Assembly: GCA_003024785.1 (NCBI GenBank) | Contig: PUQB01000209.1 | Coordinates: 243,294 to 307,293, forward strand | Reading direction: 5' to 3' | From: Selaginella tamariscina | Lineage: Eukaryota > Streptophyta > Lycopodiopsida > Selaginellales > Selaginellaceae | Length of the DNA: 64,000 nt | Shown: in pieces, positions 785 through 48,690 of the stretch | Layout: the number at the start of each line of letters is the position of its first letter | Numbering within the stretch: position 1 is the stretch's first letter | Notes under the pieces: model-generated | What the model was told of the DNA's origin: nothing | Database searches by the model: none | What the model saw: the letters and a program-made list of their open reading frames with translations, nothing else | Made by a program: the position numbers and the translations under genes

Positions 785-872
785 CTTACAAAAGCAATAA
801 GGTTTAACAAAAAACTGTAATAAATGTTCAAAGATGTTTAATAAAAATTAAAAAAACATACTAGCCCTCACA

Positions 873-1315: not shown

Positions 1316-1485
1316 TTGCAACTGTGAAGAGATGTAAAAAGATGAACAGATCATGAAAAGATCATGAGCAGATCATGAAGAAATCAGAAAATACTCACCC
1401 CCTCAATGGAAGCCTATTGTGATTAATCCCTGGAGCCACACTTGCTCCACGCTATGCCCCCAAATGCGCCGCTGCTCCACGAAAA

Positions 1486-1545
1486 CCTAGCCGCCCTCGC
1501 TGCCCTAGCCGCCCTAATTGCAAAACCCTAGCCGCCCTAAATCAA
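1486..1545. repeat. Short CCCTAGCCG tandem repeats upstream of transposase A
   Basis: Degenerate repeats of CCCTAGCCG and AAACCCTAGCC lie 260-320 bp upstream of the transposase start. They resemble plant telo-box (AAACCCTA) promoter motifs. Copy B has a shorter version at 43,630-43,690, a length difference typical of tandem repeats. Promoter function is inference. Confidence 0.5.
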
Positions 1546-1803
1546 TTAAAAACCAACCTAATTTCTGTAAACATATTGCATGCATGATCGCCACTTGTAC
1601 ATAGTAAAACTTTTTAATTTACAAAAAACCTACCCAGACGCAGTAAATTAATTTCACTCTTCTACCCAGACGCACGCAATTAATATTATTTTTAATATTT
1701 GTCAATGAAATGATTGCCTCACGACTAACAAACACATTAACCATCGTGTGTAATATGTTCATTGTCTTTGAATTTTAACTTTTGTTTGTTCCATTTTTGC
1801 TAC

Positions 1804-4800
1804 ATGGCAAGAATCAGCTACAATGGTGTTGACAAGGACTTCCCTGCAGATGAAGATGGTATTGCATTTGTCTTTGAAACAGATCTCAGGTCTGCATTTG
1901 ACATTCCACCTTGGCAATCTTTTAAAGTGCTGCATTTGATGTCTGTTGTTGGTGGAGATGCTGCGAATGTTGAGGTAGAACCAGAAGGGGCAAGAGCTAG
2001 CAGTTTTGTGTATTACACACTTCTTCCTTCCAAAGGACCGCTATTCCGGTTGGAGACAACAGATCGGGACAATTCTATGGTAACAATACTTCGCAATAGT
2101 CAGAGATGTAGGATTGGGAAGCAACTGGTGGTCTCGTCATCGATTCAGCAAGTTGCTGAGGTCCCAGAAGATTGCAACGGAAATGTGATTTACGAGTTGC
2201 CAGCACACGAAACAATGAAGGACAAGTACAAAGGGATGAATAGGAAGGATGGGTGTGATTACTGGACTCAACGCTGCACAACACATTGGAATGTTCCAGC
2301 TCGTGTTAGTCGCAGTTCATGTATTGGCCACATGAAATGCGTAAAGGAAACATGTCCGTTCATCAGCTTCAGTAAGAAAGCAAATGACTGCCAATTTAAG
2401 GGCACCATTGATAAAGTCCAGTTATCTTCAGATGGTAGAGTGCTTGGAATGAAGTGTGTGCATTGCAACAATGAGCCCCTTCTAGTGCAGACATGCTCCG
2501 TTGCATATTACATAATTCCAGATGATATCACATGCACGAGGCTTTTCATCCATCTTGGAGAACATCAACACCCACGTAGACCACCCGAATCCATGGTCTC
2601 TAAAGACAGAGCTAAGGAGACAATCAACAAAGCAGTCGCTGCAACCCCAAGAACTAATCAACGTGTCATAGAGTTTCAAGCAGCACGCAATATAATTTTG
2701 GAAAAACTGGTAACAGATTCTGGAGATGTATCATACGACAAGGTTCTGTCAGATCTACTACCACTCACAAATCACCGCCGGTAAGCAAAAAAATTATTAT
2801 TTCCTTTTGGAGATGCTTAACCTTTCCAATGTAGAACAAGAGAATGGATATCTCAGGCTAGAACAACAGACACTCGTTTCAAAGAAGGTTACGAAGGACT
2901 TCTGCAGTTAAAGAAGAAGCTATCAATCCCATTCATACATGTTATCCACATACCCGGAATGGACCTCAACGGAGCTGAAGAGCAGCCTTTAATCTTCAAA
3001 ATGACAGTTGCCGGCCCAGGATCCGGAATAGACTACATTAGAAGGTGTCAATCTGGAGGTGATCTCGAACAGTAGTGGGTGGTGCTAGACCACACATATC
3101 GTATTGATGATTGGTGTACACTGGGAATACATCTCTATGATCCATTGTAAGTATTAACATATCTATGTTTTAAAATACTTACTAGTATAATGCACTTATG
3201 TTTGTGTAGTTTAAGGTAGTATAATGTGAACTTTGCGGGTTCATGTCAGATGAGTCAGGTGCAATTTGGTTAGCATTGCATCAAGTTTTCAACAATGGGT
3301 CAAAGATGAGAGGAAGAGAAAGGAGTTGTTTGTTCCATTACATGCAGTCAGTGCGTCAAGTTACAAAGAAGTGGATACTTGAGGAACACAGGGAGGAGCA
3401 CATGAACCTTGCACGCTCATGGCCTGCAGCACTAACCAACCAAGATAAGTTGGAACGACGAGTAATGTTGGAGTCATTTTGGGAAGGCAGGTCCAGTAAC
3501 GTTAGCGCTTTGCAAACATGGCTGTCATGGTGGCAGACATGAAGATCATATTTCCATGACAGAGATAATTGACTTGACAGAAGATGGTGTTGCGAATGTG
3601 CCTACCACTAACAACTCCGAAGTTGTTCATGCAAGAGCACGAAAGGAGCAAGGCTGACGAAGCGTGTTCCTTTGTTGGAGGCAACAATGTTAGATTTAAC
3701 AGATGCTGTTTTCCAAAGTGCAAAGGTCAAGGCATCATTTGGGAGATATTCAGGCACAGGTCCTTCCATGGAAACTCTTCTGAAACGTGCACAGCAGAAA
3801 CTTTCAGCGGGAAAATCAGTGTCTCCCAACTTTTGCAAATCTTGTTAGTGATGAAGAGCATCTTGCAAGTCCAGAGTTTGCCTCTACAACAAATGTTCGT
3901 GTTCGAACCGTTCGTCAACCGTCAACTAGGGACCATGGGATTGATGCACTTCGTACACATAGACATGACACACCAATATGCAGAACAAGTCATCCCAAAT
4001 GCACTCAGGAAAAAAACTCAAGTTTCAAGATGTCAATGTCACTGAAAGAGAGACGTTGATGACTCAGTGGCCATCAGACGCATTGGGGAGGCAAGTCAGG
4101 TGAAATGTCTAGGTCTCACTCAGGACGGTAACAGCAAGTGTGGCAGACCCATAGGATATCCACATCATGTACCGGCACCAGGATTTCACGGTAGACGGCC
4201 AATATACAATGCATTTGGGAACATTGAGTTCACTCATCAGATGCTATGGTTCTGCCCACGCGATTCTTGTTGCTTCAGACGACCATATGCAGGGATTCCT
4301 CCTGAGAGTATTCCGAAGTTCCAGAGGTTTGGCCAGTTCAAAAAGGAACAAACTTGAATGCAAATGAGGTTGAAGCTCTTTCTGAAGCAGGATTCAAGTT
4401 GGAGGGATTTGAAGAAATGGTAAACGACAGTAGTAGCCGAATGGATCGAACACCATCACACCAAGAGGAGAGGGAGCACATAGAGTACCAACATACCATG
4501 GACGGAGTGTGCGAACACCAACAAGAATGTCCAAGGAACATGAGAAACATTACAACCAGGCAAAGATTCTTCAAGGTCGGATCAACAACGTGGAGGTGGT
4601 TCAAAGAGGAAGACTGAGCCTTCATTGTCTCTGTAGGCATGCAATCTGCTAAGGTAACAATTTCTGCTGTTCCGTCATGCACTTGTGCAACTTTTCAAAA
4701 AGCCAAGAACTGGAGCCCCTGCCAACACATGTATTTTGGTACACTCATGTTCTTGGATTAGACCCAACGATTACTTACTTCTTACAGAGCAGACCCTTAC

Positions 4801-4866
4801 TCAAGCAGAAGTGCATCGGTTATTGGTTGGTTGCAAGCGCAATGTCGAAACCTGCGGACTTTTTAA
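1804..4866 (+). pseudogene. MULE-like transposase, copy A (stop, deletion and frameshifts)
   Basis: The ATG at 1804 opens an intact first exon to about 2780 (donor CGCCG|GTAAGC). It encodes a Cys/His module (CIGHMKC..CPF, CVHC, GEHQHP) resembling a WRKY/GCM1-type zinc finger. The second exon (acceptor near 2832) carries VVLDHTYRI, the likely first catalytic Asp, but has an in-frame TAG at about 3074. The next exon has lost about 130 bp relative to copy B (45,365-45,470), which removes the strand around LAYGDMIRED. Further on, MSDESGAIW, the RSCLFHYM (CxxH) motif and a SWIM finger (CTC..CQH near 4678-4733) remain, in changing frames. Copy A therefore cannot make a full transposase. It keeps an intact exon 1 and an undamaged MSDES motif, which are exactly the parts damaged in copy B. 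Confidence 0.8.
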
Positions 4867-4870
4867 GTTT

Positions 4871-4929
4871 AGTCGGTATAGTAAAGTCTAGTCGGCAAAT
4901 AATTAGCGTTTTTCACTTGTTGGTCGGCA
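4871..4929. promoter_or_regulatory. Half-sites of the palindrome near the right end (copy A)
   Basis: Three matches to half of the central palindrome occur just downstream of the transposase gene: AGTCGGT at 4871, AGTCGGCA at 4890 and GGTCGGCA at 4922. Copy B has the same three. They are candidate subterminal binding sites for an element-encoded protein. Confidence 0.6.
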
Positions 4930-4963
4930 TTTTATAATGAAAGTTAAAATAATCTACTTGGCA

Positions 4964-4981
4964 GAATATTCTAGAATATTC
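4964..4981. promoter_or_regulatory. Perfect heat-shock element in the right end (copy A)
   Basis: GAATATTCTAGAATATTC is four alternating GAA/TTC modules with two-base spacers, the consensus bound by heat-shock factor trimers. Further GAATATTC-like modules follow up to about 5025. Copy B keeps the identical 18 bases. The match is exact; function in this plant is inference. Confidence 0.6.
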
Positions 4982-5367
4982 CCTTTTATTTGACAGAATA
5001 TTCCTGGATATTCGGGAATATGAAAAAGCCCGTTGTACGAAGCCGGTTTTTGCTAATCGCGGTTTTAATACCTTTAGAAGTGACACACGGAAGTCGATGG
5101 GAATATCATTTACTGTTGGTAACTTGTAAGTTCCTGGGCCTTGTGTAAATAAATAACCTGGTTTGATCCATGGATGTGCTTTATCACCCCACTTAAGTTC
5201 TTCCAATGCTACCCAACCAAGCCCTTGAACAAATTGCTCCCTCTATCTGTAATAACATTCATATATATATATATATATATATACACACTATATTGCATGG
5301 TATATGAATACCGATCATCCCTAATATATATAGTGTGCATTAATAGTTAATTAAATAATAAAGTATA

Positions 5368-14815: not shown

Positions 14816-15013
14816 ATAAATTAAAGATTTTTACACACGCATAGAGTCCCGCCCAAAAGGAGGCCGGGGCATGGGGCTGGAATATCCTACAATATTCTTT
14901 TAGTAGGCAGATTACAATCTTAATCAGTAAATTGAAATTGCTGAAACGTAAGTAATAACTGAGTCTGTTGATTTCATATTTAAAAATGCAAACTGGAACA
15001 TTATGTTTCATTT

Positions 15014-15160
15014 TTTCATTAAAATTGCAGCAGTGTGAAACATTTGAAACTCATTTCTACCTCTTGCATAGTAACATTTTAACAGTGCTTGATCCGCTAT
15101 TGTGGCTTGGAGGTGAAGGTGGCTCAATCTACACTGGCTCAGGTGTGATGTTCTTGTAGA
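15014..15160 (+). other. Possible captured exon inside copy C
   Basis: An AG acceptor (AAATTGCAG at 15,030) is followed by an open frame QQCETFETHFYLLHSNILTV ... GGEGGSIYTGSG up to a TAG at 15,159. It is not similar to anything in copies A or B, and I do not recognise it. It could be a host-gene fragment captured by the element, or chance. Confidence 0.2.
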
Positions 15161-15199
15161 GCTTCTCAAGTGTGAGTTTTTTTTTTTTTTTTCCATTCC

Positions 15200-18100
15200 C
15201 ATGATATTCCTCCCAAAATCAGCAGCTACAACTAGGGAGGAACCTGTAGTGGAGCCTATGTCCCAAACAAGATCACCAAGTTTACTTAGACACTCAATAA
15301 TTAGTTACATTAGTCTAACACTTTCAGTTGGATAGAGAGGTTGCAAAGACAATAAAGCCATTAGTTTTCTAAACAAAAAAAACTATTTACCATGACTGTT
15401 GAAAGCAATCTAGCATGTAACAAGGATAGCTAAACTTAGTCCGAGCAGATTTGGTTTAGTGTCTTTCCCATATGCCTTGAACATAAGTAGAACAAGAAGG
15501 TTTCCCTGTAGAATAGACAATGATAAGTATTAGTAGGCCAAATGGTTAAATGGAAAATTTTACTTTCATGTGATTTCGGAATCCCAATAACACCCCTAAT
15601 ACACATTGTACACAGTTGGAGGTCGACTTCTTTAGTTGCTTCAACAACTCTAACAATAGCCGTCGTTGTAGCAAAAACAATAAGTAACTCATTTGCAGCC
15701 GTGTGCATACCCACAAGTTGTACTACCTCATCAAATTTAATGGGTCCAGAAAGATCATATTCCTATCATAGTTGTGTGTAGTTCATTGGTCAAGTTGATG
15801 AGGATCGAGTTGAATCCGAACTCGCCTACCTCCTCAAATTGAGCATCTATTGTGTGCTACTTGTCAACTTCAGCTCTCAACTTCATGTACATCTCTGGAA
15901 AGTCATCTGCAAAAATGCCTTACACATATCTTTAATATTGCAGACAACACAATCATACGCACCTCGAGTTGTAACTAACGATGAAACATAGAACAAGAGG
16001 TCATCCTTGATGTTAATACTTGCAGCGGGGGTTGGATATCACTTAGACTGAATGTAGCTACTTCTCATGTAGGCCCAAAAGTGCTTGTAGAAGGGTTGGG
16101 TCTTCTCCTAACAAGTTGTGTGGAACTTCACCTTTTGTTCTTTGACTTCATTATAAAATCCATCTTTTTCAGTTGCCATATCACCTCTAGAAGATCTTTT
16201 GCATGCTCATTGTACAAGTCTTATTCCCATGTTGGCAGCTCCCCTCAAGGAAAATCCAACCAAAAAGGTCCATTTTTTCTCTCAAACTTGGTCAATGCAC
16301 TATGTAACTTGGACCACAGATGAGGCTGGCTTCTATGTTTCATCCACATCTTCATATTTGAGGATGGACTTTTTGCCATCGAGTACCTACATACACCACA
16401 TATGTTAAAGTCAATTGATTCTAAAGAAGAAGCTATATGTTACCTCCATATCATCTCCAGGCTATCTCGTCAACCTCCAAGAACTCGGTTGGCTCCATAG
16501 AGAAGTTAAACTTCACATAGTCGTGGAAGCCAGAGAACATCTAAGTTTTACATTGTGTGCGCATATTGTCAAACCATGTCGCAAAGTCTGCCTTAGCAAC
16601 CACCCATTCCTTGTATGCTCTCATGCTATTGACCATACCAATGACTCGTCCTCACATTGCCCTTCAATATAGATCAACTATAAACCACTTCAACCACTCT
16701 TTGTCTTGCATCCCTGGTAGGCCCAAAGTTTGCTGCATTAACTTGATGTCTACATGCCCCAATTTAGCCAAGTAGACAAGGCGCATGTCCTTAGGATTTT
16801 AGCTCTCAACAACGTGTAAAGCTTCTTCAGGCCCATCCACTTGCACTGATCCTTCAAAATTTGTGTTTTTGTTGAACCATTCCTCACCCAGCACCACCGG
16901 GTAGAGAATTGTTAGAAACTTCATTATTCTTTTATCATGCTTCTCCTACACTCGTTGTTTAAGGGTTTTCTCCATATGCAAGTTCCCCTTAGCTACTACA
17001 ACAGCTCTAGCCAAGTCATCCTCAATTTTGCCTTGCAATAACACGCACATTGGGAAAGTCAACTAGTAGCACAATTAAATTCAGCATTGACCTCAAACAT
17101 TATCTTGGTCAATATCAAACCTTGCACTGGTATAAATACCAGTGCTATGGATTAATAATTTTGACTTAAGCCATAATTTAATAAATTATGGTGGTTTAAA
17201 TTAATAAACTTTAAAATAATTTATATAATGATTTTTAATGGTTTTAAATTAAATTAAATATATAAATTTAATTTTATATTCTTTAATTTTATGAATACCT
17301 TTTCAATTTATTCATTATATAAATTCTTAGTATATATATATTTTATTAAAAATTAATTTTTACTATTCATAAATAATAAAAACTATTGTCTAAGTCAAAA
17401 CAACATACTATGAGGTCTTGTCAATTATAGTTTCCTTTTAATTTTGGATGTCAAGTCTATTCTTCTCAAGTAGCTTATTGATCATGTGAGCAAGGCCCAC
17501 CGAGCTGCTCATTGTTATCTTGATCAACTTGAGCAAGTGTGTTAGTGTGGTCTCAATAGCTGTAGAAAAGGAGTTGCATGTAGCACAAGTTAGAATTGAA
17601 ATCACAATTAAATCATGTGCAAACTTATTAATTTGTTTGAAGAGTGTGACAAATTGGAGGTTGTTTGCTCTATCTGGGTATATGAAGGCAGAGCACACCC
17701 AAACTACCCACTTGGTTTTGTCATTGGTGTTCTCTTTATAAAGTTGTTGTAGAACATGCAACCTCTAGTTGCCATCCTAGTAGATGAATTTCCTCATTGA
17801 AAGTAATAGAGCCTAGTCCTTGAAGGCATTGTTCTCAACCAACTCAGCTTCAAAGGCATCATCATGTTCTCATTCGCCTTTATGTTTTGCATGTCATCAC
17901 TGCTCAACTTATCCCTGATTGATAGAATGAACTGACTCATGTTCCTCATATATCCATGCGATCTTTGAAAACTGCACAAACAGCTTGTTTAGATCAGTCG
18001 GGTTCACATGCTAAACCATTTCATTCTTCTCAATGTGGCAAATTGGGACATTTGGAGGGTCGCCAATGTTGAAGACTGTAAGGAGCACTAGTTGTCAAAC

Positions 18101-18633
18101 GGGGCTATTAGAATGCAAATTTGCAATTATCTTATATACCTCTCTATCCTTCTACTCGACTTTCCCTTTCCTCTTGGCTGCACTATCTACATTTGGGTCT
18201 TCCTTGTGTCGCCTTCCCTTTTTTGTGGTTCTTCTTCTTCAATAGAAATGGCAACTACCTCATGCGTCTACATATCATGTGTCTGCATCAGAACCTCTAA
18301 TTCAACACCAAAGTTCAACTTTGGAGGTGCTTCTTGGTAATCCTTTCCAAGATCTTCGTCTACATTTGACAAATCCAAAGTGCCCAAGTTGATTGTGTCA
18401 AGTCTAAGATGTTCCTCAAGCTCACATGGGTTGCTGATGCCGATGTTTTCTTTAACCATGAACGAAGTTGTAATGAAGCCAATTTCCTCCACTTCTTGGA
18501 TTTGCAGCATTGATTGCGATGCTTCACCTTCCACATTAGCTCGACCACAACATCTTTTTGGCTTAGCTCTAGCTACCTCTTTTTAAATTGAAGGCTTAGC
18601 CTTCTTAGCTTGTAATTGTTGTGAGGAACGCAT
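15200..18633 (-). pseudogene. ParB/methyltransferase-like gene of copy C, decayed
   Basis: The start is MRSSQQLQAKKAK (ATG complement 18,631-18,633), matching MRSSQRLQEKKMK of copy B. An acidic region follows. Near 17,735-17,790 the ParB-like motif is seen as DGN-stop-RLHVLQQLYKENT, where copy B has DGNHRLKVLQ. The downstream block NNLQFVTLFKQINK also matches. Near 15,560-15,714 the methyltransferase-side block GMHTAANELLIVFATTTAIV matches GMHMAANGWLVVFAAANTWD of copy B. The segment 15,215-15,300 matches the SAM-binding region, including ATCCCAGATAAGATCACC-like sequence. Many stops and frameshifts make it non-coding now. It lacks the DLPN segment between these blocks. Confidence 0.75.
17150..17430. 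other. AT-rich stretch inside copy C
   Basis: About 250 bases of nearly pure A/T between the ParB-like and middle parts of the decayed minus-strand gene, probably an intron or a later insertion. Nothing codes here. Confidence 0.4.
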
Positions 18634-18704
18634 CTATAATACAAGCCAATATTAGTATTGGAAGCTTACATTCAAGCATGAGATGTGCAAGTGCAAGAAA
18701 TGTG

Positions 18705-19150
18705 GCCGACTAGGAAGGTCGTTGCCCCATCTCTCTTAGTTGATAGTATTTGTAGATTATGAGGTTCCCTGTTCAATACTTAAATATAAGGATGCTTGGT
18801 TAAACAAGCATAGAAAACAAGGCTTTAAGTTATAAGGTTTAAAACACAATTGAATACACCCTCAAACTTAGTGCACTCTAGAGCTCCCAATTTATGGGTC
18901 AATACATTATACCGACTGGGGAGGTCATTGCCCCATCTCCTAGTTGGCAGAGTGTGTAGCTTGTACTAAGGTAGTTGTGGCATTCCTTTCAAGATTCGGG
19001 AACTATTAAGAAAGCCTGAACAAATCCATACCTCTTTTGATTTTTGTTTTGGCGAGTTAGCTTGAGCTTGTACAAAGGCAGTCTTGGAACCTATTTGCAG
19101 CTCCTGCCGACTAGTAGACAGGGGTAACAATGTCCTTAGTTGGCCACACT
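18705..19150. repeat. Central repeats of copy C with GCCGACT half-sites
   Basis: Between the two gene starts lie two copies of a unit: one starting GCCGACTAGGAAGGTCGTTGC at 18,705 and one starting ACCGACTGGGGAGGTCATTGC at 18,911. A weaker third starts GCCGACTAGTAGACAGG at 19,106. Each ends with CTTAGTTG or CTAGTTGGCAG. GCCGACT is the reverse complement of the AGTCGGC half-site of the A/B palindromes, so the core motif is kept although the repeat unit differs. Confidence 0.6.
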
Positions 19151-19159
19151 AGATGCGGG

Positions 19160-20040
19160 TAAAGGAAACTTGACTCATCCTCTTGTCACTACTATCTTTC
19201 CCCTCGACTTAGCATTGGTTCCAATTGCAAACACATTAGTCGCCATTGCATCCACTCCTCACAACCAAAGCTAGAAACACTGACCTTAGATTCAACAAAG
19301 TGTCCAAGTAGACAATGGCAAAGACCTGGCTCTCTAAACCTTGAAGTGCCCAAATCACAAAAAAGCTTCACCCAAGTGCTCACACTCCAAGCTCCCAAGG
19401 GCCCTATCCCTTGAATCACACTCCTAGCTACCAAGCTGCAAGCGGCCAACCATGAATCACTCAAATCGCCATGGCCCACTTGCCTATTGCATAAGGAAGC
19501 ACCCAAAACGGAATGAACAAACCCCAACTCAATTTGGCCGCAAACAACAATACCCTAACCTAGAACCTTAACATCACATGCTAAAGGATCATGATCACAC
19601 ATCTTGCAATTTTTAAGATAAGTTGGCATGTCATTTATGTCATAGTTTTAACCTGGTGGGTTGAGCACATGGGTAAAGATTGTGGGATATGTGGGAAAGA
19701 CTCAAGTGTAATTGGGTTATCATGACCAAAGGCCCTTTCATAAACACCAATTGGCCCTTTGCCTAATTAGCTTAAGAGGAAAGGGAAAGGTTGTGACAAC
19801 TCATGTGTGTTAAATGGTCTTGACCACTCATGTTACAATGTATAAAATGAGCTGGCATTCCAGACACGTACCCAAATGTTAGTATACTATCTGCTTACGT
19901 ATGCATCTATTGAGACATTGTGGTGACAATAATGCACTATTAAAAATTAAAATATTAGGTTGTCCCATTAGTTCTTTCTCTTTTGATTTATTGTTTAATC
20001 ATTAAACAATGGGTTTATGTTAAAGTTCTAAGCAAACTAA
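19160..20040. other. Copy C, upstream region of the transposase gene
   Basis: The region lacks clear coding sequence. It is the counterpart of the 5' non-coding region of the A/B transposase gene but is not alignable by eye. Confidence 0.4.
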
Positions 20041-20044
20041 AGAA

Positions 20045-22170
20045 ATGACCCACATAACTTACAAAGGGATGGAGCTGGAGTACAGTGGATGAAGATGGTG
20101 TTGCATTTGTATTTGCTAAGGACTTCCATAAGAGTTTTAATATACATGCAAACACAAGGTTATTCAGTTATGGGCGGAGGTGTAGGGAATAAGAAGATCA
20201 TACCTGAGGAAGTTAGAAGGGGCGATTTCATCTTCTACACGCTGATTCCTTTGAAGGGTCCTTTGTTTAGGCTAGAGATCGATGAGTGTAAGAACTCAAT
20301 GATCGCCATTCTACTACAAGTAGACAAATGTAAGATCGGGAAATTATTTGTTAAATCTTCTGTGGTATCTATTGTCACAAAATTGCTAACCACATTCAAT
20401 GGGAATATTATCTTTGAACTCCCTCTGCACACAGGAAGCACTGACAAGTACATAGGCATGCATTAGAAGGAGGGTGTGCATCACTGGACACATCCAAGTA
20501 CGTCTCATTGGCAAATCCCAACTCGTATGAGCAAGAGCACTTGCATTGGGCATTTGAGATGCCTCAACAATTCTTACCCCTTTTTTACTTTCCAAAACAC
20601 AAAAGATGAGTGCCACTTTGAGTATGATCCAGAAGATGAATGCACAACAATTGGAACAATCAAGGAATTGCAATGCTAGCACTGCCCTACTGTAATGTAC
20701 ACTGTGATTTCAAACGATGTCAATTTCACAAGACTCTTTATTCATTGCAAATAACATGATCATCCCACCAAGAGTATTGTCTCTGCAACTGCTAGAAATG
20801 CAATCCAGAAAATAATGGAGATTTCCTCAAGGTCAAATTGAAGAGTTGTAGAGTTTTAAGTTGCATGAAATCATTTTGGATGAGTTTTTCAAAGATTTTG
20901 TAGATGTTTCATATAAGAAATTATTGTCTGACCTGCTCCCACTAATAAACAATTGCCGATACGTAGAACTCAATTCTTTTGCATATAACTAACACAAATT
21001 CTACATGATGGATTGCCCAAGCCATGAATGAAAGTTCACTTTTCATAGAAGTGTTGATGGACTACTATAGTTGAAAAAGAAGTTAACGATCCCATTTATT
21101 CATTTTTTTCATTTACCAGGCATAAAAATGAATAGAGCGGACAAGCAGTCACTAATATTCAAAATGATTGTGGATAGTCCAATTTTGGAGTTAAGTATAT
21201 AAGAAGATACTAGAGGGTGGTTTTAGACCGCACCCATCGAATACCAAAATGGTCAACAATCGAGATTCATGTTTATGATCCTTTGTAAGTTGTTGAGATT
21301 TTTTCAATTTTTCATCTTGCATTTTTATTAATAGTCTCAATTCCATGGTGACAATAGCATATGGTGACATGTAAAGAGAGGACACAGTTGCAATCATTAA
21401 GTTTCTAAACACTATGTTGAGTGTTTGCGCTTTACAAGACCTTCTGATGGTGACTTTTGATGGGTTCATGTCTAATGAAGCAAGTGCAATATGGCAAGTT
21501 CTCCGCAAGGTATTCAAAAATGGTGAAAAGATGAACATTAAAGAAAGAAGTTGCATCTTTCATTATATGAAGTCTATTAGGTAGGTGACTAGAAAATGGA
21601 TTGCTAAGGAACACAGGGAACAACACATCCAGTTGGCATGATCGTGGCCTCAAGCTCTTACTACCTTAGAGAAGAAAAAGCGAAGGATAACTCTCGAGAA
21701 CTTTTGGGAAGGCTAGTTGAACAATCTCCTTGCCATGAAAACTTAGTTAGCATGGTGGTCAAGATATGGAGACCACATATCACAAGCGGAATTGAAGGAT
21801 ATGGGACCGAAGAGTGTGTTCACATTCCAACAACTAACACTGTTGAAGTGGTTCATGCAAGAGCAAGAAGAGCAAGACTAACAAAGCAAGTACCACTACT
21901 AGAGGTAGACCTCACAGATGCTATACTTTAGAGTGCGAAGGTACTAACAACAAGACAAGAAAGGTATGCTGGCTCAGATCCTTCAATAGAGGCATTATTT
22001 AGGTGTGTCCAAAGACAGTTGTCAATTGGGAATTCCATTTTGCCCATAACTATTATAGACTTTGTCTCTAATAATGTAGAGAAGTAAAGAATTTGAAGCC
22101 ATAACCAATGTCAGAGTAGAAATGGTTTCGCAGGCAAATGTTGGACTAGTGGAATTGATGATCTGCAATC
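20045..22170 (+). pseudogene. MULE-like transposase of copy C, decayed and 3'-truncated
   Basis: The ATG at 20,045 (MTHITYKGMELE) aligns with MARISYNGVDKD of copy B. Blocks FIFYTLIPLKGPLFRLE and GNIIFELPLHTGSTDKYIGM match its FVYYTLLPSKGPLFRLE and GNVIYELPAHETMKDKYKGM. Then come the zinc-finger part (STCIGHLRCLNN, CHF), a DDE-like part (VVLDRTHRIPKWS near 21,212) and MVTFDGFMSNEASAIW near 21,450. Next is ERSCIFHYMKS near 21,547 with the conserved CxxH, and the region up to VEVVHARARRARLTKQVPLL. In-frame stops (for example at 20,464) and frameshifts abound. The match ends near 22,170, so the SWIM finger is lost. It helps define which transposase residues are conserved in the family. Confidence 0.8.
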
Positions 22171-32279: not shown

Positions 32280-32281
<2 letters not shown>

Positions 32282-32330: not shown

Positions 32331-32332
<2 letters not shown>

Positions 32333-32448: not shown

Positions 32449-32494
32449 TGCTGCTCAATCAAAGCCTGGCTTATGGGAGGCTTGGACACACAGG
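32449..32494 (+). other. Leader exon 1 of NLR2
   Basis: TGCTGCTCAATCAAAGCCTG...GGCTTGGACACACAG|GTAGGG. It matches the NLR1 leader on the other strand, with the donor kept. Confidence 0.5.
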
Positions 32495-35908: not shown

Positions 35909-35961
35909 GAACGTACGCACACACTCCAACGGCCAACTAGGGTTTTAATCGAGGATCTGAA

Positions 35962-39565: not shown

Positions 39566-39581
39566 TTTAGGATTTTGGCTC

Positions 39582-39589
39582 AGTCGGCA
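39582..39589. promoter_or_regulatory. Half-site AGTCGGCA at the left end of copy B
   Basis: This is the same half of the central palindrome found three times at the right end. It lies 92 bases beyond the stop codon of the methyltransferase-like gene. Confidence 0.5.
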
Positions 39590-39680
39590 ATTAACAACAA
39601 AAAATATTTAAATCATAGCCATGTTTATACTGTATTATTAAAGTTTTATTTCAACACCAAAGAGTACAATTCAACACTTG

Positions 39681-42600
39681 TCACTTCTTCTTACGATTGA
39701 GCAATGCTGCAATTCGTGAACCACCAGTCCTACTTGACGTCGCTATTGGTTGGGTTGGGATTTCCTCTGGCTGGATGTTCTCTTTAATCCTGTTCATAGC
39801 AATTCTCCCGAGCTCAGGGTTCTTCTCAGTCCCAACAATGTTTCTCCCCAGCTCGATAGCTGCAAGCATTGAGGACCCCGTACCACTGCCTATATCCCAG
39901 ATAAGATCACCTGGCCGGGTGAGTCGTTCTATCACGAGCTGCATCAATCGAGTGCTCTTCGGTTGGTAGTCCATCCTGCATGTGAAGATAATGGTAAATA
40001 CTTAAATTGTTGAAATGAAATGCCTACCATGGTTCTTGGAACCGCTCAGGATTATCAACAAGAATTGTTGATGACAAACGCAGCGGATTATCGCGCAATC
40101 CTCTAGATGCATCTTGGAAGACAAGAAGGAGCAGGATGCTCTCCTGTTAAAACATCAAAAATCATTAATGAACTTCATGAATAAAGAAAAAAGTACCTTC
40201 ATCTTGTTGCGGTAGCCCCAACCACGCCCTCTGTAGATGTAGTACGTTGCAGCAAGTTGAAGGTCCACCACACTTGCAGCTCGGACAACTTGATCCCAGG
40301 TGTTTGCTGCAGCAAACACAACCAACCAACCATTTGCAGCCATATGCATACCTGCAAACTGGAGTGCTTCATCGAACTTCACTGGATCAAGGTAGAGGTA
40401 TGGCGTATCACTCGTTGTATTTCCTGGCAAGGTCCCATTTGGAAGGTCGAAGATCACCAAGTTGAAACCATATTCTCCCGCAATATGCTGGTAGCGAGTC
40501 TGGCTGTCAGCTGTATGGTACCTGGCCACCTGTGTCTGAACTTTTCTATAAGGAACCAGTCTAGCGTCAGGAACCTCCTCTTCCTTCTCATCCGTGAGCA
40601 CGGCCTGTTGCATCTCCTCGATGTCATCAATCGCCAAGAAATTATCACCTCGAGTTGTAGCAAGTGAAGGGACGAATGTGACCAAGTCATCCTTGATGTC
40701 CATGGTTCCCTGCGATGGTAGCACTTCAGATAAATTGAAGAAGGCAGCTGGATCGCGAGTAGTGGAGGTGCCAGCTACTGTATCTGAGGTCTTCTTTGAC
40801 TGCTGCACAGGCTGACGCCGCTTTGCCTTGGCCTTTGTCTTCTTAATGAAGTCGACCTCTGCCGGATCCCATGAGATGCATGGGAGATCTTTTGAGTGTT
40901 CATTGTAGAGATCCTTCTCCCATGTTGGTGGTTGCCCAGGTGGATAATCAAGCCAGAACGGTACGTTACACGTTCGAACTCTGTCAGGCCAGATCTTGTC
41001 TTCGACCACATGTGTGGTGCTTCCATGTAATCTGACCAGAATACCATAGTCTGTGTGTGAGGCACCTTTCTCGCTGCGACATACCTGTAATGAACATATA
41101 GTAGTGTCAGAATGTAACAATGTCAAGAAGATCATCCTTACCTCCAAATCATCCTTCTTGCTGTCTCTTCGTGTTCGAGGAACTCTTTCGGCTCTATGGA
41201 GTAAGTGAACTTCACACACTCATGGAATGGCTGGAACATCACGTTCTTGCATTTTACCCGCACTTCATCGTACCAAGTCGTGAAATCTGTAACCGGCCTG
41301 TCCACTCGCCATCCTCGATGAGTCCCGTGAGAATCTGTACTGCCTCCTCTCTGATTGCCGCCAATACAAATCGATAGTAAACCACCTTATCCACTCCTTA
41401 TCCTGAACACCCGGCAATCCAAGTGTCTCAGTTTTATTGAAGTACATGATTCTCGTCTCGTTTGGAATTCTCGCCCTTGAAAGCGCGTACAGCTTTTCCA
41501 ACCCCATCCATCTGCATTGTTTCCATGTGATTTGGGTCACCTTGTCGAACCACTCTTCACCCAATGCAGGATCGATGATGGCTAAGATCTTCATCATGCG
41601 CTTGTCATGCTTAATGTAGACCTGTTGTTGCTCCTGGTATTTGTTGCCTTTGGATGCCCTTGCAGCCTTCTCAAGATCATCCTCAATCTCACTCTGTAAT
41701 TCACAGACGTAATCAACTAAGTAATATAAGTGTGAGACGTGGTACCTCAAAAAAATCTTTGCACAGATCAAATTCGGAAGTGGATGCCAAGCTTGTTGTC
41801 CAGTGCGCTTTCCTTCCACTTTCTTATGTCATCTCGTTCCTTGTCACTGAGCCTGGCCAAGATCTTCGCTGTGCCCTCCTCACTGGTGCAACATGTCTTC
41901 ACAGATAGCAGAAGATGTGGCAGTGTGGTTTGCACTGCCGTTGCGGAGGAACTGCATATTTGAAAATCTCGAAGTTAGTTAATCCTATGATCTAGAGGTC
42001 ACTATGTTTACCTATTAATTTGCTGAAACATTGTCACAAGCTGAAGATTATCCATGACCCCAGCACGGATGAAGCCTGAACGCACTCTCACTGCCCACTG
42101 ATTCTTATCTTCCGTGTCTTCTATGTACAGCTTCTGAAGCACCTTTAGCCTGTGATTACCATCCCAACAGATGAACTTCTTCATCGAAAGCATTGGTGCC
42201 CATTGCCGGAACATGTCAGACTGAAGCTCCTCCTCAAAAGCCAAATGCTGAGCATACATCGCTTCATCGCTTCTCAATGCTGCCAGATCTGCATCTGTCA
42301 TGGGGTCCCCAACTTGAAGGATGAACTGAGTGGTGTTGCGCAAATAACCAACTGCCTTCTTGAAACTCCTAGTCAAAGATTCCAGATCCGCTGGATTGAC
42401 TCTCCGCACCTGCTCATTTCCCAGAATTCGGCAAATAGGGACATCCGGTGCCTCTCCATATTCTCGGATTGTGATCTTCGCGAGAAGACGCACTGCACTC
42501 TCCGAATGCATGCTGGCTGCAATGTTGTAAACTTCCTCATTATCTGGCACTTCTGCTTTACCCTTCTTCTTCTTCTTAGCAGCCTCTGAATCTCCAGCAG

Positions 42601-42970
42601 CTTTGCGTCGTCTCTTCTTGTTCTTGGGTTCATCCTCTTCGTCACTCGACAAAGTCACTGCGCATGAGGCTTGTGTGCCTTCTGTCTGCTCCTGTGTCTC
42701 CTGTGGTAAGACATCATCCTCAACTTCTTCAACAAAGTCTGATTGTTCTTGTTGGGGTTGAACTACATCCTCTTGCTCTCCTGACCAGTCCTGCTGGCTT
42801 GCCTGTTCAACTGGAGCATCACTTGAAGGTCCTTGTTCCTGAACCACAGCCAGCTTCCTACTTCCTCTCCCACGACCCCGACGCCCTCTCTGAATTGCAG
42901 CTCTAGCTTCTGCTTCTCTCTCAGTAGGCTCCTTCATCTTCTTTTCTTGTAAACGTTGTGAAGAGCGCAT
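39681..42970 (-). pseudogene. ParB-like + beta-type amino-methyltransferase-like protein of copy B
   Basis: Exon 1 (about 42,013-42,970) has a basic/acidic N-terminus, a KKRRRK cluster and then a ParB-like domain with DGNHRLKVLQKLY (ParB/Srx GxxR motif). Middle exons (41,750-41,955, 41,142-41,695) are helical linker. The C-terminal exons are about 40,197-41,086 (FDLPNGTLPG, at the place of the catalytic (D/N)PPY motif IV), 40,026-40,147, and 39,681-39,966 with the SAM-binding loop LIWDIGSGTGSSMLAAIELG (stop TGA 39,681). Motif IV before motif I is the beta-class order of DNA adenine/cytosine amino-methyltransferases. Frames shift near 41,765, 41,375, 41,300 and 41,070, so it is broken or misread, although its domains are well kept. 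The role is inferred: DNA binding at the palindromes and perhaps DNA modification of the transposon. DLPN lacks the usual aromatic residue, so activity is doubtful. Confidence 0.65.
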
Positions 42971-43054
42971 CTACAAAAGCAATAAGGTTTAACAAAAAAC
43001 TGTAATAAATGTTCAAAGATGTTTAATAAAAATTAAAAAAACATACTAGCCCTC

Positions 43055-43495
43055 ACAGTCGGCGTGCCGACTGAGAGAGCAGTTGCTGTAAGTCCCAGTC
43101 GGCATGCCGACTGGGCCTGGCAACAAAGGGAGCCCAGTCGGCATGCCGACTGGGACTGGCACAAAGGGAGCCCAGTCGGCATGCCGACTGGGACTGGCAT
43201 CAAAGGGTCCCAGTCGGCATGCCGACTGGGACTGGCAACAAAGGGAGCCCAGTCGGCATGCCGACTGGGACTGGCAACAAAGGGAGGCCCAGTCTGGGAC
43301 TGGGAACGAAGCAAGGCCCAGTCAAAATGCTAGGTGGGACTAGAACAGTCAACCCTAGTCAAAATGCTGACTGGGGCTGGAACAGTCAACCCCGGTCAAA
43401 ATGTTGACTGGATCTGGAACAGTCCACCCCAGTCGGCCTGCCGACTGGGACGGACAACGAAGTCAGTCCGAGTCGGCAGGCCGACTCGGATTTCT
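43055..43495. repeat. Palindrome array between the divergent genes (copy B)
   Basis: Like copy A: five units of CCAGTCGGCATGCCGACTGG with a 37-39 bp period between about 43,095 and 43,270. These are preceded by the variant CAGTCGGCGTGCCGACTG and followed by a broken unit (CCCAGTCTGGGACTGGG at about 43,288), diverged units and two closing palindromes. The spacers differ slightly from copy A, so unit order has been reshuffled since the copies split. Confidence 0.9.
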
Positions 43496-43950
43496 TGCAA
43501 CTGTGAAGAGATGTAAAAAGATGAACAGATCATGAAAAGATCATGAGCAGATCATGAAGAAATCAGAAAATACTCCCCCTCAATGGAAGCCTATTGTGAT
43601 TAATCCCTGGAGCCACACTTGCTCCACGAAAACCTAGCCGCCCTAGCTGCCCTAGCCGCCCTAATTGCAAAACCCTAGCCGCCCTAAATCAATTAAAAAC
43701 CAACCTAATTTCTGTAAACATATTGCATGCATGATCGCCACTTGTACATAGTAAAACTTTTTAATTTACAAAAAACCTACCCAGACGCAGTAAATTAATT
43801 TCACTCTTCTACCCAGACGCACGCAATTAATATTATTTTTAATATTTGTCAATGAAATGATTGCCTCACGACTAACAAACACATTAACCATCGTGTGTAA
43901 TATGTTCATTGTCTTTGAATTTTAACTTTTGTTTGTTCCATTTTTGCTAC

Positions 43951-46900
43951 ATGGCAAGAATCAGCTACAATGGTGTTGACAAGGACTTCCCTGCAGATGA
44001 AGATGGTATTGCATTTGTCTTTGAAACAGATCTCAGGTCTGCATTTGACATTCCACCTTGGCAATCTTTTAAAGTGCTGCATTTGATGTCTGTTGTTGGT
44101 GGAGATGCTGCGAATGTTGAGGTAGAACCAGAAGGGGCAAGAGCTAGCAGTTTTGTGTATTACACACTTCTTCCTTCCAAAGGACCACTATTCCGGTTGG
44201 AGACAACAGATCGGGACAATTCTATGGTAACAATACTTCGCAATAGTCAGAGATGTAGGATTGGGAAGCAACTGGTGGTCTCGTCATCGATTCAGCAAGT
44301 TGCTGAGGTCCCAGAAGATTGCAACGGAAATGTGATTTACGAGTTGCCAGCACACGAAACAATGAAGGACAAGTACAAAGGGATGAATAGGAAGGATGGG
44401 TGTGATTACTGGACTCAACGCTGCACAACACATTGGAATGTTCCAGCTCGTGTTAGTCAGTTCATGTATTGGCCACATGAAATGCGTAAAGGAAACATGT
44501 CCGTTCATCAGCTTCAGTAAGAAAGCAAATGACTGCCAATTTAAGGGCACCATTGATAAAGTCCAGTTATCTTCAGATGGTAGAGTGCTTGGAATGAAGT
44601 GTGTGCATTGCAACAATGAGCCCCTTCTAGTGCAGACATGCTCCGTTGTTGCATATTACATAATTCCAGATGATATCACATGCACGAGGCTTTTCATCCA
44701 TCTTGGAGAACATCAACACCCACGTAGACCACCCGAATCCATGGTCTCTAAAGACAGAGCTAAGGAGACAATCAACAAAGCAGTCGCTGCAACCCCAAGA
44801 ACTAATCAACGTGTCATAGAGTTTCAAGCAGCACGCAATATAATTTTGGAAAAACTGGTAACAGATTCTGGAGATGTATCATACGACAAGGTTCTGTCAG
44901 ATCTACTACCACTCACAAATCACCGCCGGTAAGCAAAAAAATTATTATTTCCTTTTGGAGATGCTTAACCTTTCCACTGTAGAACAAGAGAATGGATATC
45001 TCAGGCTAGAACAAGAGACACTCGTTTCAAAGAAGGTTACGAAGGACTTCTGCAGTTAAAGAAGAAGCTATCAATCCCATTCATACATGTTATCCACATA
45101 CCCGGAATGGACCTCAACGGAGCTGAAGAGCAGCCTTTAATCTTCAAAATGACGGTTGCCGGCCCAGGATCCGGAATAGACTACATTAGAAGGTGTCAAT
45201 CTGGAGGTGATCTCGAACAGCAGTGGGTGGTGCTAGACCACACATATCGTATTGATGATTGGTGTACACTGGGAATACATCTCTATGATCCATTGTAAGT
45301 ATTAACATATCTATGTTTTAAAATACTTACTAATATAATGCACTTATGTTTGTGTAGTTTAAGGTCGATGGTGACACTTGCTTATGGTGACATGATCAGG
45401 GAGGATAGTGTGGCGGTGATCAAATTTTTGAACACTATGCTTCAAGTGTGCAGCAAGCAAGGACTTCATAATGTGAACTTTGCGGGGTTCATGTCAGATG
45501 AGTTGCAATTTTTTGCGTCAAGTTTTCAACAATGGGTCAAAGATGAGAGGAAGAGAAAGGAGTTGTTTGTTCCATTACATGCAGTCAGTGCGTCAAGTTA
45601 CAAAGAAGTGGATACTTGAGGAACACAGGGAGGAGCACATGAACCTTGCACGCTCATGGCCTGCAGCACTAACCAACCAAGATAAGTTGGAACGACGAGT
45701 AATGTTGGAGTCATTTTGGGAAGGCAGGTCCAGTAACGTTAGCGCTTTGCAAACATGGCTGTCATGGTGGGCAAGACATGAAGATCATATTTCCATGACA
45801 GAGATAATTGACTTGACAGAAGATGGTGTTGCGAATGTGCCTACCACTAACAACTCCGAAGTTGTTCATGCAAGAGCACGAAGAGCAAGGCTGACGAAGC
45901 GTGTTCCTTTGTTGGAGGCAACAATGTTAGATTTAACAGATGCTGTTTTCCAAAGTGCAAAGGTCAAGGCATCATTTGAAGGGAGATATTCAGGCACAGG
46001 TCCTTCCATGGAAACTCTTCTGAAACGTGCACAGCAGAAACTTTCAGCGGGAAAATCAGTGTCTCCAACAACTTTTGCAAATCTTGTTAGTGATGAAGAG
46101 CATCTTGCAAGTCCAGAGTTTGCCTCTACAACAAATGTTCGTGTTCGAACCGTTCGTCAACCGTCAACTGGGGACCATGGGATTGATGCACTTCGTACAC
46201 ATAGACATGACACACAATATGCAGAACAAGTCATCCCAAATGCACGCAGGAAAAAACTCAAGTTTCAAGATGTCAATGTCACTGAAAGAGAGACGTTGAT
46301 GACTCAGTGGGCCATCAGACGCATTGGGGAGGCAAGTCAGGTGAAATGTCTAGGTCTCACTCAGGACGGTAACAGCAAGTGTGGCAGACCCATAGGATAT
46401 CCACATCGTGTACCGGCACCAGGATTTCACGGTAGACGGCAATATACAAATGCATTTGGGAACATTGAGTTCACTCATCAGATGTTATGGTTCTGCCCAC
46501 GCGATTCTTGTTGCTTCAGACGACCATATGCAGGGATTCCTCCTGAGAGTATTCCAGAAGTTCCAGAGGTTTGGCCAGTTCAAAAAGGAACAAACTTGAA
46601 TGCAAATGAGGTTGAAGCTCTTCTGAAAGCAGGATTCAAGTTGGAGGGATTTGAAGAAATGGTAGACGACAGTAGTAGCCGAATGGATCGAACACCATCA
46701 CCACCAAGAGGAGAGGGAGCACATAGAGTACCAACATACCATGGACGGAGTGTGCGAACACCAACAAGAATGTCCAAGGAACATGAGAAACATTACAACC
46801 AGGCAAAGATTCTTCAAGGTCGGATCAACAACGTGGAGGTGGTTCAAAGAGGGAAGACTGAGGCCTTCATTGTCTCTGCAGGCATGCAATCTGCTAAGGT

Positions 46901-47111
46901 AACAATTTCTACTGTTCCGTCATGCACTTGTGCAACTTTTCAGAAAGCCAAGAACTGGAGCCCCTGCCAACACATGTATTTTGTGTACACTCATGTTCTT
47001 GGATTGGACCCAACGATTACTTACTTCTTACAGAGGCGGACCCTTACTCCAGCAGAAGTGCATCGGTTATTGGTTGATTGCAAGCGCAATGTCGAACCTG
47101 CGACCTTTTAA
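43951..47111 (+). pseudogene. MULE-like transposase, copy B (zinc finger, DDE-like core, SWIM)
   Basis: The ATG at 43,951 (MARISYNGVDKD) is preferred over an upstream TTG frame. Exon 1 to 44,930 has the WRKY/GCM1-like module CIGHMKC..CVHC..GEHQHP. Two bases are missing near 44,457, shifting the frame. Exon 2 (44,982-45,295) holds WVVLDHTYRI (likely first catalytic Asp). Exon 3 (from 45,359) holds LAYGDMIRED and NFAGFMSDE (likely second Asp). Just after it, where A and C read MSDESGAIW / MSNEASAIW, copy B has a different 20-base stretch and a frame change. From about 45,515 to 47,111 the frame is open: ERSCLFHYMQSV (CxxH), EEHREEHMNL (possible Glu), a long linker, C/H-rich CGRPIGYPHRVPAPGFHG..CPRDSCCF, and the SWIM finger CTC..SPCQH (46,923-46,975). 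Stop TAA 47,109. A transposase of this layout binds element ends and cuts DNA. Confidence 0.8.
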
Positions 47112-47113
47112 GT

Positions 47114-47172
47114 AGTCGGTATAGTAAAGTCTAGTCGGCAAATAATTAGCGTTTTTCACTTGTTGGTCGGCA
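47114..47172. promoter_or_regulatory. Half-sites near the right end (copy B)
   Basis: AGTCGGT at 47,114, AGTCGGCA at 47,133 and GGTCGGCA at 47,165, as in copy A. They are in the same orientation as the left-end half-site at 39,582. Confidence 0.6.
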
Positions 47173-47207
47173 TTTTATATTGAAAGTTAAAGATAATCTA
47201 CTTGGCA

Positions 47208-47225
47208 GAATATTCTAGAATATTC
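47208..47225. promoter_or_regulatory. Perfect heat-shock element in the right end (copy B)
   Basis: GAATATTCTAGAATATTC, four GAA/TTC modules, identical to copy A. It is followed by GAATATTCCTGGATATTC and GGGAATAT up to 47,267. Confidence 0.6.
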
Positions 47226-47300
47226 CCGTTTATTTGACAGAATATTCCTGGATATTCGGGAATATGCAAAAAGCCCGTTGTACGAAGCCCGGTTTTTGCT

Positions 47301-48690
47301 ATCCTCAACCAATATGGGTTCTCAAGTGCATGTGTATGTGTGTGCATAGAGATATAGAAGAAATGGATATGTGTAAACGGCTATTTCAGCATATATACAC
47401 ACAAAACGTTATATAAAATGTGAATTTTATTTATATATGGGTTTTTCTAAAAAGTGACATAGTGTTACTTTGTTATGGCAGGTTTAAAGAAGAGTGAATT
47501 TAAATTAGTATAAATAATCATTTACTTATGTTTTATAATTAATCAATGTGATATTGTCAATGGATTTATGGGTGACTTTAAACAAAAATAATTTATTTAA
47601 ATGATTAATAAAATGACTAATCACTTATACAAGTCAATCCTTATGAATCACACTTACCCCCATAGAATATATAAAGGAACTTAAATATTTTTTAAAAAAC
47701 TACAATATATTAATTATGTATATATTTAGTATGCTTCAAGTCTCTCTCTAAATACACGTGAAAATAATCCACACGATTACTATATATATACTAATATAGA
47801 TTGTATCTTTTTATTGAAATATTATATACTTTATATTTTTTATTTTTATATTTTTAAATTTAATAGTATATAAACATTATATATGCATAAACATACATTA
47901 CACATTGTATATACTTTTAATATATTTTAATTTAATTATTGTATAATTTATCATTTATTACAAATTACATATTTAAATATATTAAATCACATTACATTTA
48001 AAATTAAATTTTATAAATTATTAGTGGGATTTTTCATTTTTAAACATAAATTCCATATTAAAATTAAGAATTATTAAAATCTGTAAATTTACATTTAGCA
48101 ATAATTCTGTAATGATAATTTGATTTAATTGTCTTTCCATAATGAATTTGTTTTTTTGTTTTGCATTAATTTTTTTCTTATTAACTAACGTCGCCTTTAT
48201 TTATTTATGTATTCCATCTTAAAAATATAAATATATATAATAGGTTAAATTTCTTAAAAAAACCATAATTCTTTATGAGTATACAAATATTTATTTTATT
48301 AACCTAAATCTAACTCTGCGACTTTATAATATTATTATTATATATATGTATCATACATACACACACATACATAATTAATATGATTTATTTATTTATTTCA
48401 TATGATTTATCTATCTATACAATATATATATAAGAAAGGTTATATAAATGTGTTTATGAAAAAACACAAAAGTACAAACTATATTACATTTAAATAATTA
48501 AAGACTTCAGAACACTATGTTTGAATGATTTACACTTCTTGACGCCTGCCGATTCGAGCAAAAATTATATGAAAATTTAAATATATACTTAAGCTTCGAC
48601 TGCGTAGTTAGGGTGTAGTCAAACTCAAGAGATAAATTAAATGGAGTGTTGGGTTAGTGTGTGAAACTTAGTTCTATAGTATATATCTGT
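47301..48690. other. AT-rich intergenic region, nothing recognised
   Basis: About 1.4 kb of A/T-rich DNA with TA tracts on the right flank of copy B. I find no exon and no xanthine dehydrogenase sequence here, which matters for interpreting the split XDH gene. Confidence 0.5.

What the first reader, a model, noticed from the sequence alone, without database searches (positions are those of the whole stretch)
39566..47300. Transposon pairing a MULE-like transposase with a ParB / amino-methyltransferase-like protein
Seen: in copies A, B and C a minus-strand gene with a ParB-like DGNHR motif, continuing in B (and in part C) into a methyltransferase-like end (motif IV position, then IGSGTG SAM loop), is divergent from a transposase with zinc-finger, CxxH and SWIM modules. 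Established: ParB-domain and beta-class amino-methyltransferase proteins are mainly bacterial or phage proteins, while MULEs usually carry only a transposase plus captured genes. Inference: the element carries its own DNA-binding and possibly epigenetic module, for silencing escape, self-marking or copy control.
Basis: partly seen in the sequence, partly recalled or inferred. Interest (0 to 1): 0.9.

Follow-up and report, generated by a model that had tools for sequence, protein, structure and literature searches.

The report
Plant transposon with bacterial-type DNA methylase
A mobile DNA element in what looks like a plant genome carries, back to back with its transposase gene, a gene for a protein that ends in a bacterial-type DNA methylase and has a ParB-like stretch nearer its start, and between the two genes lies an array of near-identical palindromes that could be the address label this protein uses to find its own element.

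Summary
The divergent gene pair is real. Copies A (1-5055, cut by the window start) and B (39566-47301) are one young family; C (about 14.9-22.1 kb) is an old, stop-riddled relative with the same order. The minus gene ends in a significant beta-class amino-methyltransferase half (PF01555, E 7.5e-10). Its ParB half rests on a DGNHR motif: no ParBc profile matched, and A does not reach the motif. Both genes show the third-codon-position excess expected of purifying selection, so the methylase gene looks maintained. New here: eight perfect palindromes AGTCGGCNNGCCGACT between the genes in each of A and B (0.02 expected), the half-site also enriched in C. Motif IV reads DLPN instead of DPPY, so catalysis is in doubt. 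The idea is not new: a divergent ParB plus N4/N6-methyltransferase gene is published in the Ectocarpus Sola1-1 element. Most likely it is a self-targeting DNA-marking or anti-silencing factor that works like VANC of plant VANDAL elements but is built from bacterial-type parts: a new variant of a known kind.

The parts
42012..42970 (-). exon 1 of the accessory gene: charged low-complexity N-terminus, then ParB-like region; DGNHR at 42163-42149
   Evidence: ORF 42011-42970; splice site read by eye; no ParBc HMM match; third-position excess vs C in the ParB part p 3e-6, in the N-terminal tail p 0.17
41746..41951 (-). exon 2 (stretch after the ParB-like region); apparent one-base frameshift near 41770
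   Evidence: ORF and splice sites read by eye; aligned to C
41142..41693 (-). exon 3, middle region, no family match; apparent frameshift(s) near 41400-41300 in B
40197..41073 (-). exon 4: middle region and first half of the methyltransferase; motif IV reads DLPNG at 40448-40434
   Evidence: aligned with four phage enzymes
40028..40143 (-). exon 5 of the methyltransferase
39681..39975 (-). exon 6: motif X and SAM loop DIGSGTG (39896-39876), stop codon
   Evidence: PF01555 E 7.5e-10; phrog_67 DNA methyltransferase E 9.7e-13; CcrM model E 3.5e-7, far below its cut-off
43057..43486 (.). array of 8 perfect palindromes AGTCGGCNNGCCGACT (starts 43057, 43097, 43136, 43174, 43212, 43251, 43431, 43471) in the region between the two genes
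   Evidence: 16 matches in the window (8 in A, 8 in B), all with 0 mismatches, mean 0.02 expected
43951..44928 (+). transposase exon 1 with Cys/His finger region; frameshifted near 44457 in B, open in A (1804-2781)
44983..45294 (+). transposase exon 2, first catalytic-type Asp in LDHTYR
   Evidence: constrained vs C p 1e-7
45358..47111 (+). transposase exon 3: MSDE, SCLFH (CxxH), C-terminal SWIM-like CxC...CxH; frame broken near 45500 in B
   Evidence: SWIM PF04434 E 0.014 and 0.0057, both below the curated cut-off
47133..47301 (.). right subterminal region: one AGTCGGCA, then repeated GAATATTC units up to the end of A/B identity at 47301
39582..39588 (.). single AGTCGGC near the left side of B; the element end itself lies in or beyond the gap
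1..5055 (.). copy A (cut by window start; right end 5055), 8 palindromes at 872-1307
14880..22084 (.). copy C, old relative: accessory gene about 15.08-18.65 kb (-), transposase about 20.08-22.08 kb (+), half-sites at 18705-19144

Best explanation
A two-gene, MULE-like DNA transposon of a plant. Gene 1 (+) is the transposase. Gene 2 (-) encodes an element-specific protein with a ParB-like region in its N-terminal half and a C-terminal beta-class amino-methyltransferase domain. I propose that this protein recognises the element through the palindrome array between the genes (and single half-sites near the ends), loads there, and marks or shields the element's DNA so that its two promoters escape host silencing, as VANC proteins do for VANDAL elements. 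Shown: the gene pair, the methyltransferase end, the codon-position constraint, the array and the recurrence of its half-site in C. Inferred: the ParB fold, which protein binds the array, any methylation, and the anti-silencing effect.
For: PF01555 and phage methyltransferase matches to exon 6. Same divergent arrangement in the unlike families A/B and C. Third-position excess in a nucleotide-level alignment of B and C, not chosen on protein similarity: accessory gene 255/215/386 mismatches at positions 1/2/3 in 783 codons (p 7e-20), transposase 183/112/298 in 576 (p 3e-30). Eight perfect palindromes in each of A and B, mean 0.02 expected in the window. The half-site CCNAGTYGGC with at most 1 mismatch occurs 5 times in the region between the genes of C against 0.43 expected, reached in 0 of 300 shuffles, although only 25 bases of that region were aligned with B. 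A maintained second gene plus tandem motif arrays in non-coding parts is the published VANC/VANDAL21 pattern (PMC5735166, passages). A ParB plus N4/N6-methyltransferase protein opposite to the transposase is published in Ectocarpus Sola1-1_Ec32, with the same suggestion of self-binding and self-modification (PMC12477816, passages).
Against: No ParBc profile match in Pfam, NCBIfam or PHROGs and a useless fold model (pLDDT 40.7). Motif IV reads DLPN, not (D/N/S)PP(Y/F/W) (that consensus is recalled), and C has N at the same place, so the enzyme may not methylate. No ParB-type helix-turn-helix was found by those profile searches. Nothing links the array to gene 2 rather than gene 1. The exon 1 N-terminus, exon 5 and exon 6 are not individually significant for constraint (p 0.17, 0.07, 0.08). 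A and B both have broken frames.
Confidence: 0.42

Rival explanations
1. The palindromes are transposase or host transcription-factor sites (promoter control, like subterminal sites of other plant transposons), and gene 2 acts elsewhere, for example marking newly replicated element DNA to time transposition.
For: Single AGTCGGCA copies sit in the outer parts on both sides of B (39582, 47133), where transposases usually bind (recalled); the transposase has its own Cys/His finger region.
Against: The right end of A and B and the left of C carry a different repeat (GAATATTC units; no chance control was run for it), a candidate for the transposase; the array starts 87 bases upstream of the first ATG of gene 2.
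Confidence: 0.3
2. Gene 2 encodes a catalytically dead methyltransferase-fold protein that only reads or coats DNA (repressor or anti-silencing shield).
For: Motif IV DLPNG in B; the matching C segment ends NLTN with N at the same position, so the missing aromatic is probably ancestral; the four phage relatives aligned have DLPY, DPPY, DPPY and SPPY there.
Against: The SAM loop DIGSGTG and motif X region are kept, which a pure coat protein would not need; C is decayed, so its letters are weak evidence; one altered aromatic need not abolish activity.
Confidence: 0.25
3. Gene 2 is a captured passenger of no use to the element (Pack-MULE type).
For: MULEs often carry gene pieces (recalled); A and B are both broken.
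Against: Present in the same place and direction in two element families that differ at about half of third positions, with constraint; its methyltransferase matches are to phage and bacterial enzymes, although those were the collections at hand and plant gene databases could not be searched.
Confidence: 0.05
4. The N-terminal region is not a ParB/Srx domain at all; the DGNHR match is coincidental.
For: No HMM match at any threshold tried; fold model uninformative.
Against: A DGNHRL motif after a hydrophobic stretch is as in ParB/Srx-fold proteins (the DGQHR/DGQQR signature is described in PMC4619093, passages); the methyltransferase partner is a published one (PMC12704722); the same architecture is named in Ectocarpus.
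Confidence: 0.2

Closest known systems
Ectocarpus Sola1-1_Ec32 ParB plus DNA methyltransferase accessory gene (PMC12477816, passages seen)
   Same: Accessory gene transcribed opposite to the transposase; ParB-like plus N4/N6 amino-methyltransferase in one protein (1104 aa); [quoted passage not shown]
   Different: Sola-1 element of 21.5 kb in a brown alga; here a MULE-like element of at least 7.7 kb in a plant-type genome; no palindrome array is mentioned in the passages seen.
VANC anti-silencing proteins of Arabidopsis VANDAL elements (PMC5735166, passages seen)
   Same: A transposon-encoded second protein with tandem short motifs clustered in non-coding parts of the element; the motif is highly enriched in its own family.
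   Different: The passages seen describe VANC as a motif-binding protein, not a methylase (that it has no ParB or methyltransferase domain is recalled); its motif is the non-palindromic YAGTATTAY, and its effect is loss of DNA methylation.
ParB-CTPase fold fused to N6_N4 methyltransferase in phages and prophages (PMC12704722, passages and section 7 seen)
   Same: Domain pair.
   Different: Prokaryotic setting; the survey names sulfiredoxin as the most common eukaryotic representative of the fold, and its main text has no occurrence of 'transpos'.
TET/JBP-encoding fungal DNA transposons (PMC12730594, passages seen)
   Same: DNA transposons carrying a phage-type DNA-modifying enzyme, discussed as a counter to silencing.
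   Different: Acts on 5mC by oxidation; another enzyme class.

Membership tests
Beta-class N6/N4 amino-methyltransferase (PF01555) | significant profile match, SAM loop and motif X | tested here: met
   PF01555 39.6 bits against cut-off 26.7, profile 165-220 of 221; spliced 429-aa piece 36.7 bits
Beta-class N6/N4 amino-methyltransferase (PF01555) | motif order IV before X and I | tested here: met
   DLPNG precedes DIGSGTG by about 150 residues and aligns with motif IV of four phage enzymes; the Pfam profile itself matched only the C-terminal quarter
Beta-class N6/N4 amino-methyltransferase (PF01555) | catalytic (D/N/S)PP(Y/F/W) (consensus recalled) | tested here: not met
   DLPN in B; NLTN in decayed C
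ParB/Srx fold | ParBc profile match | tested here: not met
   none listed in Pfam, NCBIfam, PHROGs
ParB/Srx fold | DGxxR phosphate-binding motif after a hydrophobic stretch | tested here: met
   KKFICWDGNHRLKVLQKL in B; DGN-stop-R in C; not covered by A
ParB/Srx fold | three-dimensional fold | tested here: inconclusive
   AlphaFold2 on 3 sequences, pLDDT 40.7
Mutator-like element (MULE) | MULE transposase profile (PF10551) | tested here: not met
   not listed up to E 10 on the joined core, with X at the break of B
Mutator-like element (MULE) | D...D...CxxH order with C-terminal SWIM | tested here: inconclusive
   LDHTYR, MSDE, SCLFH and CTC...CQH read from sequence; SWIM E 0.0057, 16.6 bits against cut-off 19.6
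Mutator-like element (MULE) | 8-11 bp target site duplication and terminal inverted repeats | not testable with these tools
   left end of A outside the window, of B in or beyond the gap; right end of C not found
VANC-type anti-silencing system | tandem family-specific motif in non-coding parts | tested here: met
   specificity seen within this window only
VANC-type anti-silencing system | homology to VANC and motif binding with loss of silencing | not tested
   needs binding and methylome data; claimed only as working-like

The most novel reading that the evidence does not exclude
A plant transposon carries its own addressable DNA-marking system: a ParB-like/amino-methyltransferase protein that loads on a family-specific palindrome array, a parS-like address, and writes a non-5mC mark (or blocks 5mC) on its own copies, a bacterial-parts counterpart of VANC and possibly a programmable epigenetic tool.
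Probability: 0.25. Interest if true: 0.85.

Novelty: new variant of a known kind. Interest (0 to 1): 0.6.

Why it matters
Element-encoded ParB/methyltransferase proteins have been noted in algal transposons; in the passages that I could read, no target or test is given. This element brings the kind to a genome with plant-type genes (Dof, NB-ARC, LRR), shows codon-position constraint on the gene alongside the transposase, and supplies a concrete candidate DNA address, so the self-marking idea becomes directly testable by gel shift and methylome mapping. If true, it is a route by which a eukaryotic transposon uses phage-type chemistry to evade silencing.

Tried and rejected
Family libraries for the ParB half (Pfam, NCBIfam, PHROGs; whole exon, joined exons 1-2, and the core alone): no ParB family. 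Weak unrelated listings there were CDC45, THOC2_N and Raftlin, phrog_23026, and DUF3037 and Acetone_carb_G, all below their cut-offs where one is given. The PDB by sequence with exon 1: one chance-level match (EZH1, E 1.6). AlphaFold2 on A1 (B, A and a short C piece): pLDDT 40.7, discarded; no fold search was made on it. Viral contigs, searched with the exon 4 ORF and with the transposase exon 3 ORF: no relatives. Phage tblastn with exon 1: no match up to E 1; with exon 6: 277 records, all below 60% identity. The 22-bp palindrome in viral contigs: 0. The 16-bp palindrome in prokaryote genomes: 38 stretches, each with one site (read on both strands); in 257 billion bases about 60 are expected for random sequence (my arithmetic), so chance and not a bacterial parS. 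A first codon-position count from tblastx segments was replaced by a nucleotide alignment, because segments picked by protein similarity favour third-position change; I left out B 41396-41300 and 41182-41142 of the accessory gene, the broken spots and everything after 46100 of the transposase, and codons with gaps. Pack-MULE passenger considered and rejected (see rivals). Terminal repeat search: no convincing terminal inverted repeat between the right end of B and the left of C beyond the GAATATTC-type units. Papers: ten searches. No listed title or abstract start describes a plant MULE with a ParB/methyltransferase gene, but most lists were cut (7 of 7, 20 of 32, 15 of 167, 25 of 55, 15 of 41, 20 of 171, 12 of 38, 12 of 202, 10 of 424 and 10 of 272 papers shown), the library holds open-licence papers only, and the two sources cited by the Ectocarpus paper (Iyer 2011; Petroll 2025) are not held and were not read.
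Full report
What is there. The window comes from a genome with plant-type genes: of nine ORFs scanned, six matched a Pfam family at E 0.01 or better, among them NB-ARC (9e-11 and 4e-8), LRR_RPS2 (2e-8), a Dof zinc finger (7e-8) and a B3 domain (3e-5, below its curated cut-off); three matched nothing. That Dof and NB-ARC/LRR genes mean a plant is recalled knowledge; the species is unknown. Copy B of the element runs from the edge of an assembly gap (N 39147-39565) to 47301, where identity with copy A ends. A starts before the window and ends at 5055; the three aligned blocks of A and B are 96.9, 98.1 and 99.3% identical. C, at about 14.88-22.08 kb, shows the same two genes in the same divergent order at about half amino-acid identity (0.49 and 0.55 in the compared segments). 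It has 11 stops in 563 compared codons of the accessory gene and 9 in 493 of the transposase, one of the nine lying at an exon-intron border and shared with B.

The accessory gene. I read six exons on the minus strand from ORFs and GT-AG sites: 42970-42012, 41951-41746, 41693-41142, 41073-40197, 40143-40028, 39975-39681. These junctions are by eye, not from transcripts, and B has at least two apparent frameshifts (near 41770 and near 41400-41300). Exon 6 matches N6_N4_Mtase above its cut-off and several phage DNA methyltransferase families, best phrog_67 at E 9.7e-13; tblastn finds 277 phage records at E 0.01 or better. An alignment with four phage enzymes, chosen from the 20 records listed of 277, puts FDLPNG of exon 4 on their motif IV (DLPYG, DPPYG, DPPYF, SPPYY). 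The aromatic position is N in B; the matching C segment ends NLTN. The Pfam profile matched only its own C-terminal quarter, so the first half of the enzyme is divergent. The N-terminal half of the protein has DGNHR in a ParB-like setting, but no ParB profile matched and the fold model failed. So 'ParB-like' is a motif-level call, strengthened mainly by the published partner domain.

The transposase. In A exon 1 is open over its whole length (1804-2781), whereas B is two bases short near 44457; B is also short near 45500 relative to A and C, and A lacks 99 bases at 45368-45466. The order LDHTYR, MSDE, SCLFH, then a SWIM-like CTC...CQH suggests a MULE-type enzyme (the MULE signature is recalled), but no MULE profile was listed and SWIM stays below its cut-off. 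I therefore write MULE-like.

Selection. A global nucleotide alignment of B and C, read in the frame of B, gives mismatches at codon positions 1/2/3 of 255/215/386 over 783 codons of the accessory gene (p 7e-20) and 183/112/298 over 576 codons of the transposase (p 3e-30). By piece of the accessory gene: ParB part p 3e-6; exon 2 p 0.03; the two exon 3 pieces p 4e-8 and 0.007; exon 4 p 4e-4. The N-terminal tail (p 0.17), exon 5 (0.07) and exon 6 (0.08) are not significant alone. All five transposase pieces are (p below 6e-4). Left out: B 41396-41300 and 41182-41142, the two broken spots and the part after 46100 of the transposase, and codons with gaps. Both genes thus look kept functional while the two families diverged, which a useless passenger would not be. 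C is decayed, which dilutes the signal, and the chi-square test treats sites as independent.

The array. Eight palindromes AGTCGGCNNGCCGACT lie in B at 43057-43486 and eight in A at 872-1307. All 16 have perfect arms although two mismatches were allowed, with a mean of 0.02 expected in the window. The central two bases vary (AT, GT, CT, AG), as for a twofold-symmetric binder touching the arms (inference). Several units share their flanks and are young tandem duplicates, so the eight are not independent. A single AGTCGGC also lies on each outer side of B (39582, 47133). In C the half-site CCNAGTYGGC with at most one mismatch occurs five times between the genes, against 0.43 expected, in none of 300 shuffles, although one search aligned only 25 bases of that region with B. 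The half-site pattern was chosen after looking at C, so the count is descriptive. The right ends carry a different repeat, GAATATTC, three perfect copies in each of A and B, with two one-mismatch copies at the left of C; no chance control was run for it.

How it may work. The closest functional precedent is VANC21 of VANDAL21: a transposon-encoded protein binds a short motif arrayed in non-coding regions and induces loss of DNA methylation (PMC5735166, passages). The closest structural precedent is the Ectocarpus Sola1-1 accessory gene, a ParB-like plus N4/N6 methyltransferase on the strand opposite to the transposase (PMC12477816, passages). Joining these, I propose that the accessory protein finds the array and marks or shields the element. 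The weak steps are the ParB fold, the owner of the array, and catalysis given DLPN.

Limits. Everything rests on three copies in one window.

Noticed in passing
25759-35911: Long inverted repeat of NB-ARC/LRR resistance-type genes (arms about 25759-29431 and 32516-35911; listed arm pairs 88-97% complementary).
   Followed up: no
9004-10587 and 12300-13909: Direct duplication about 3.3 kb apart, 99-100% alike in the listed pieces.
   Followed up: no
36339-38651: Gene-like overlapping ORFs with a P-loop-like SSCMGKTK motif; no Pfam match for 36339-37280. ORF 49041-49457 (-), also unmatched, lies on the other side of copy B.
   Followed up: partly
42838-47288 against copy A: Many one-base indels between A and B where substitutions are few; assembly errors are as likely as true lesions.
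   Followed up: partly
14880-22084: From B to C the changes G>A and C>T (136, 105) outnumber A>G and T>C (73, 52) in the accessory gene segments, as expected if C was long cytosine-methylated.
   Followed up: partly
43310-43430: Decayed array-like units (AGTCAAAATGCTGACT-like) between the perfect palindromes, suggesting turnover of the array by tandem duplication (read by eye).
   Followed up: no
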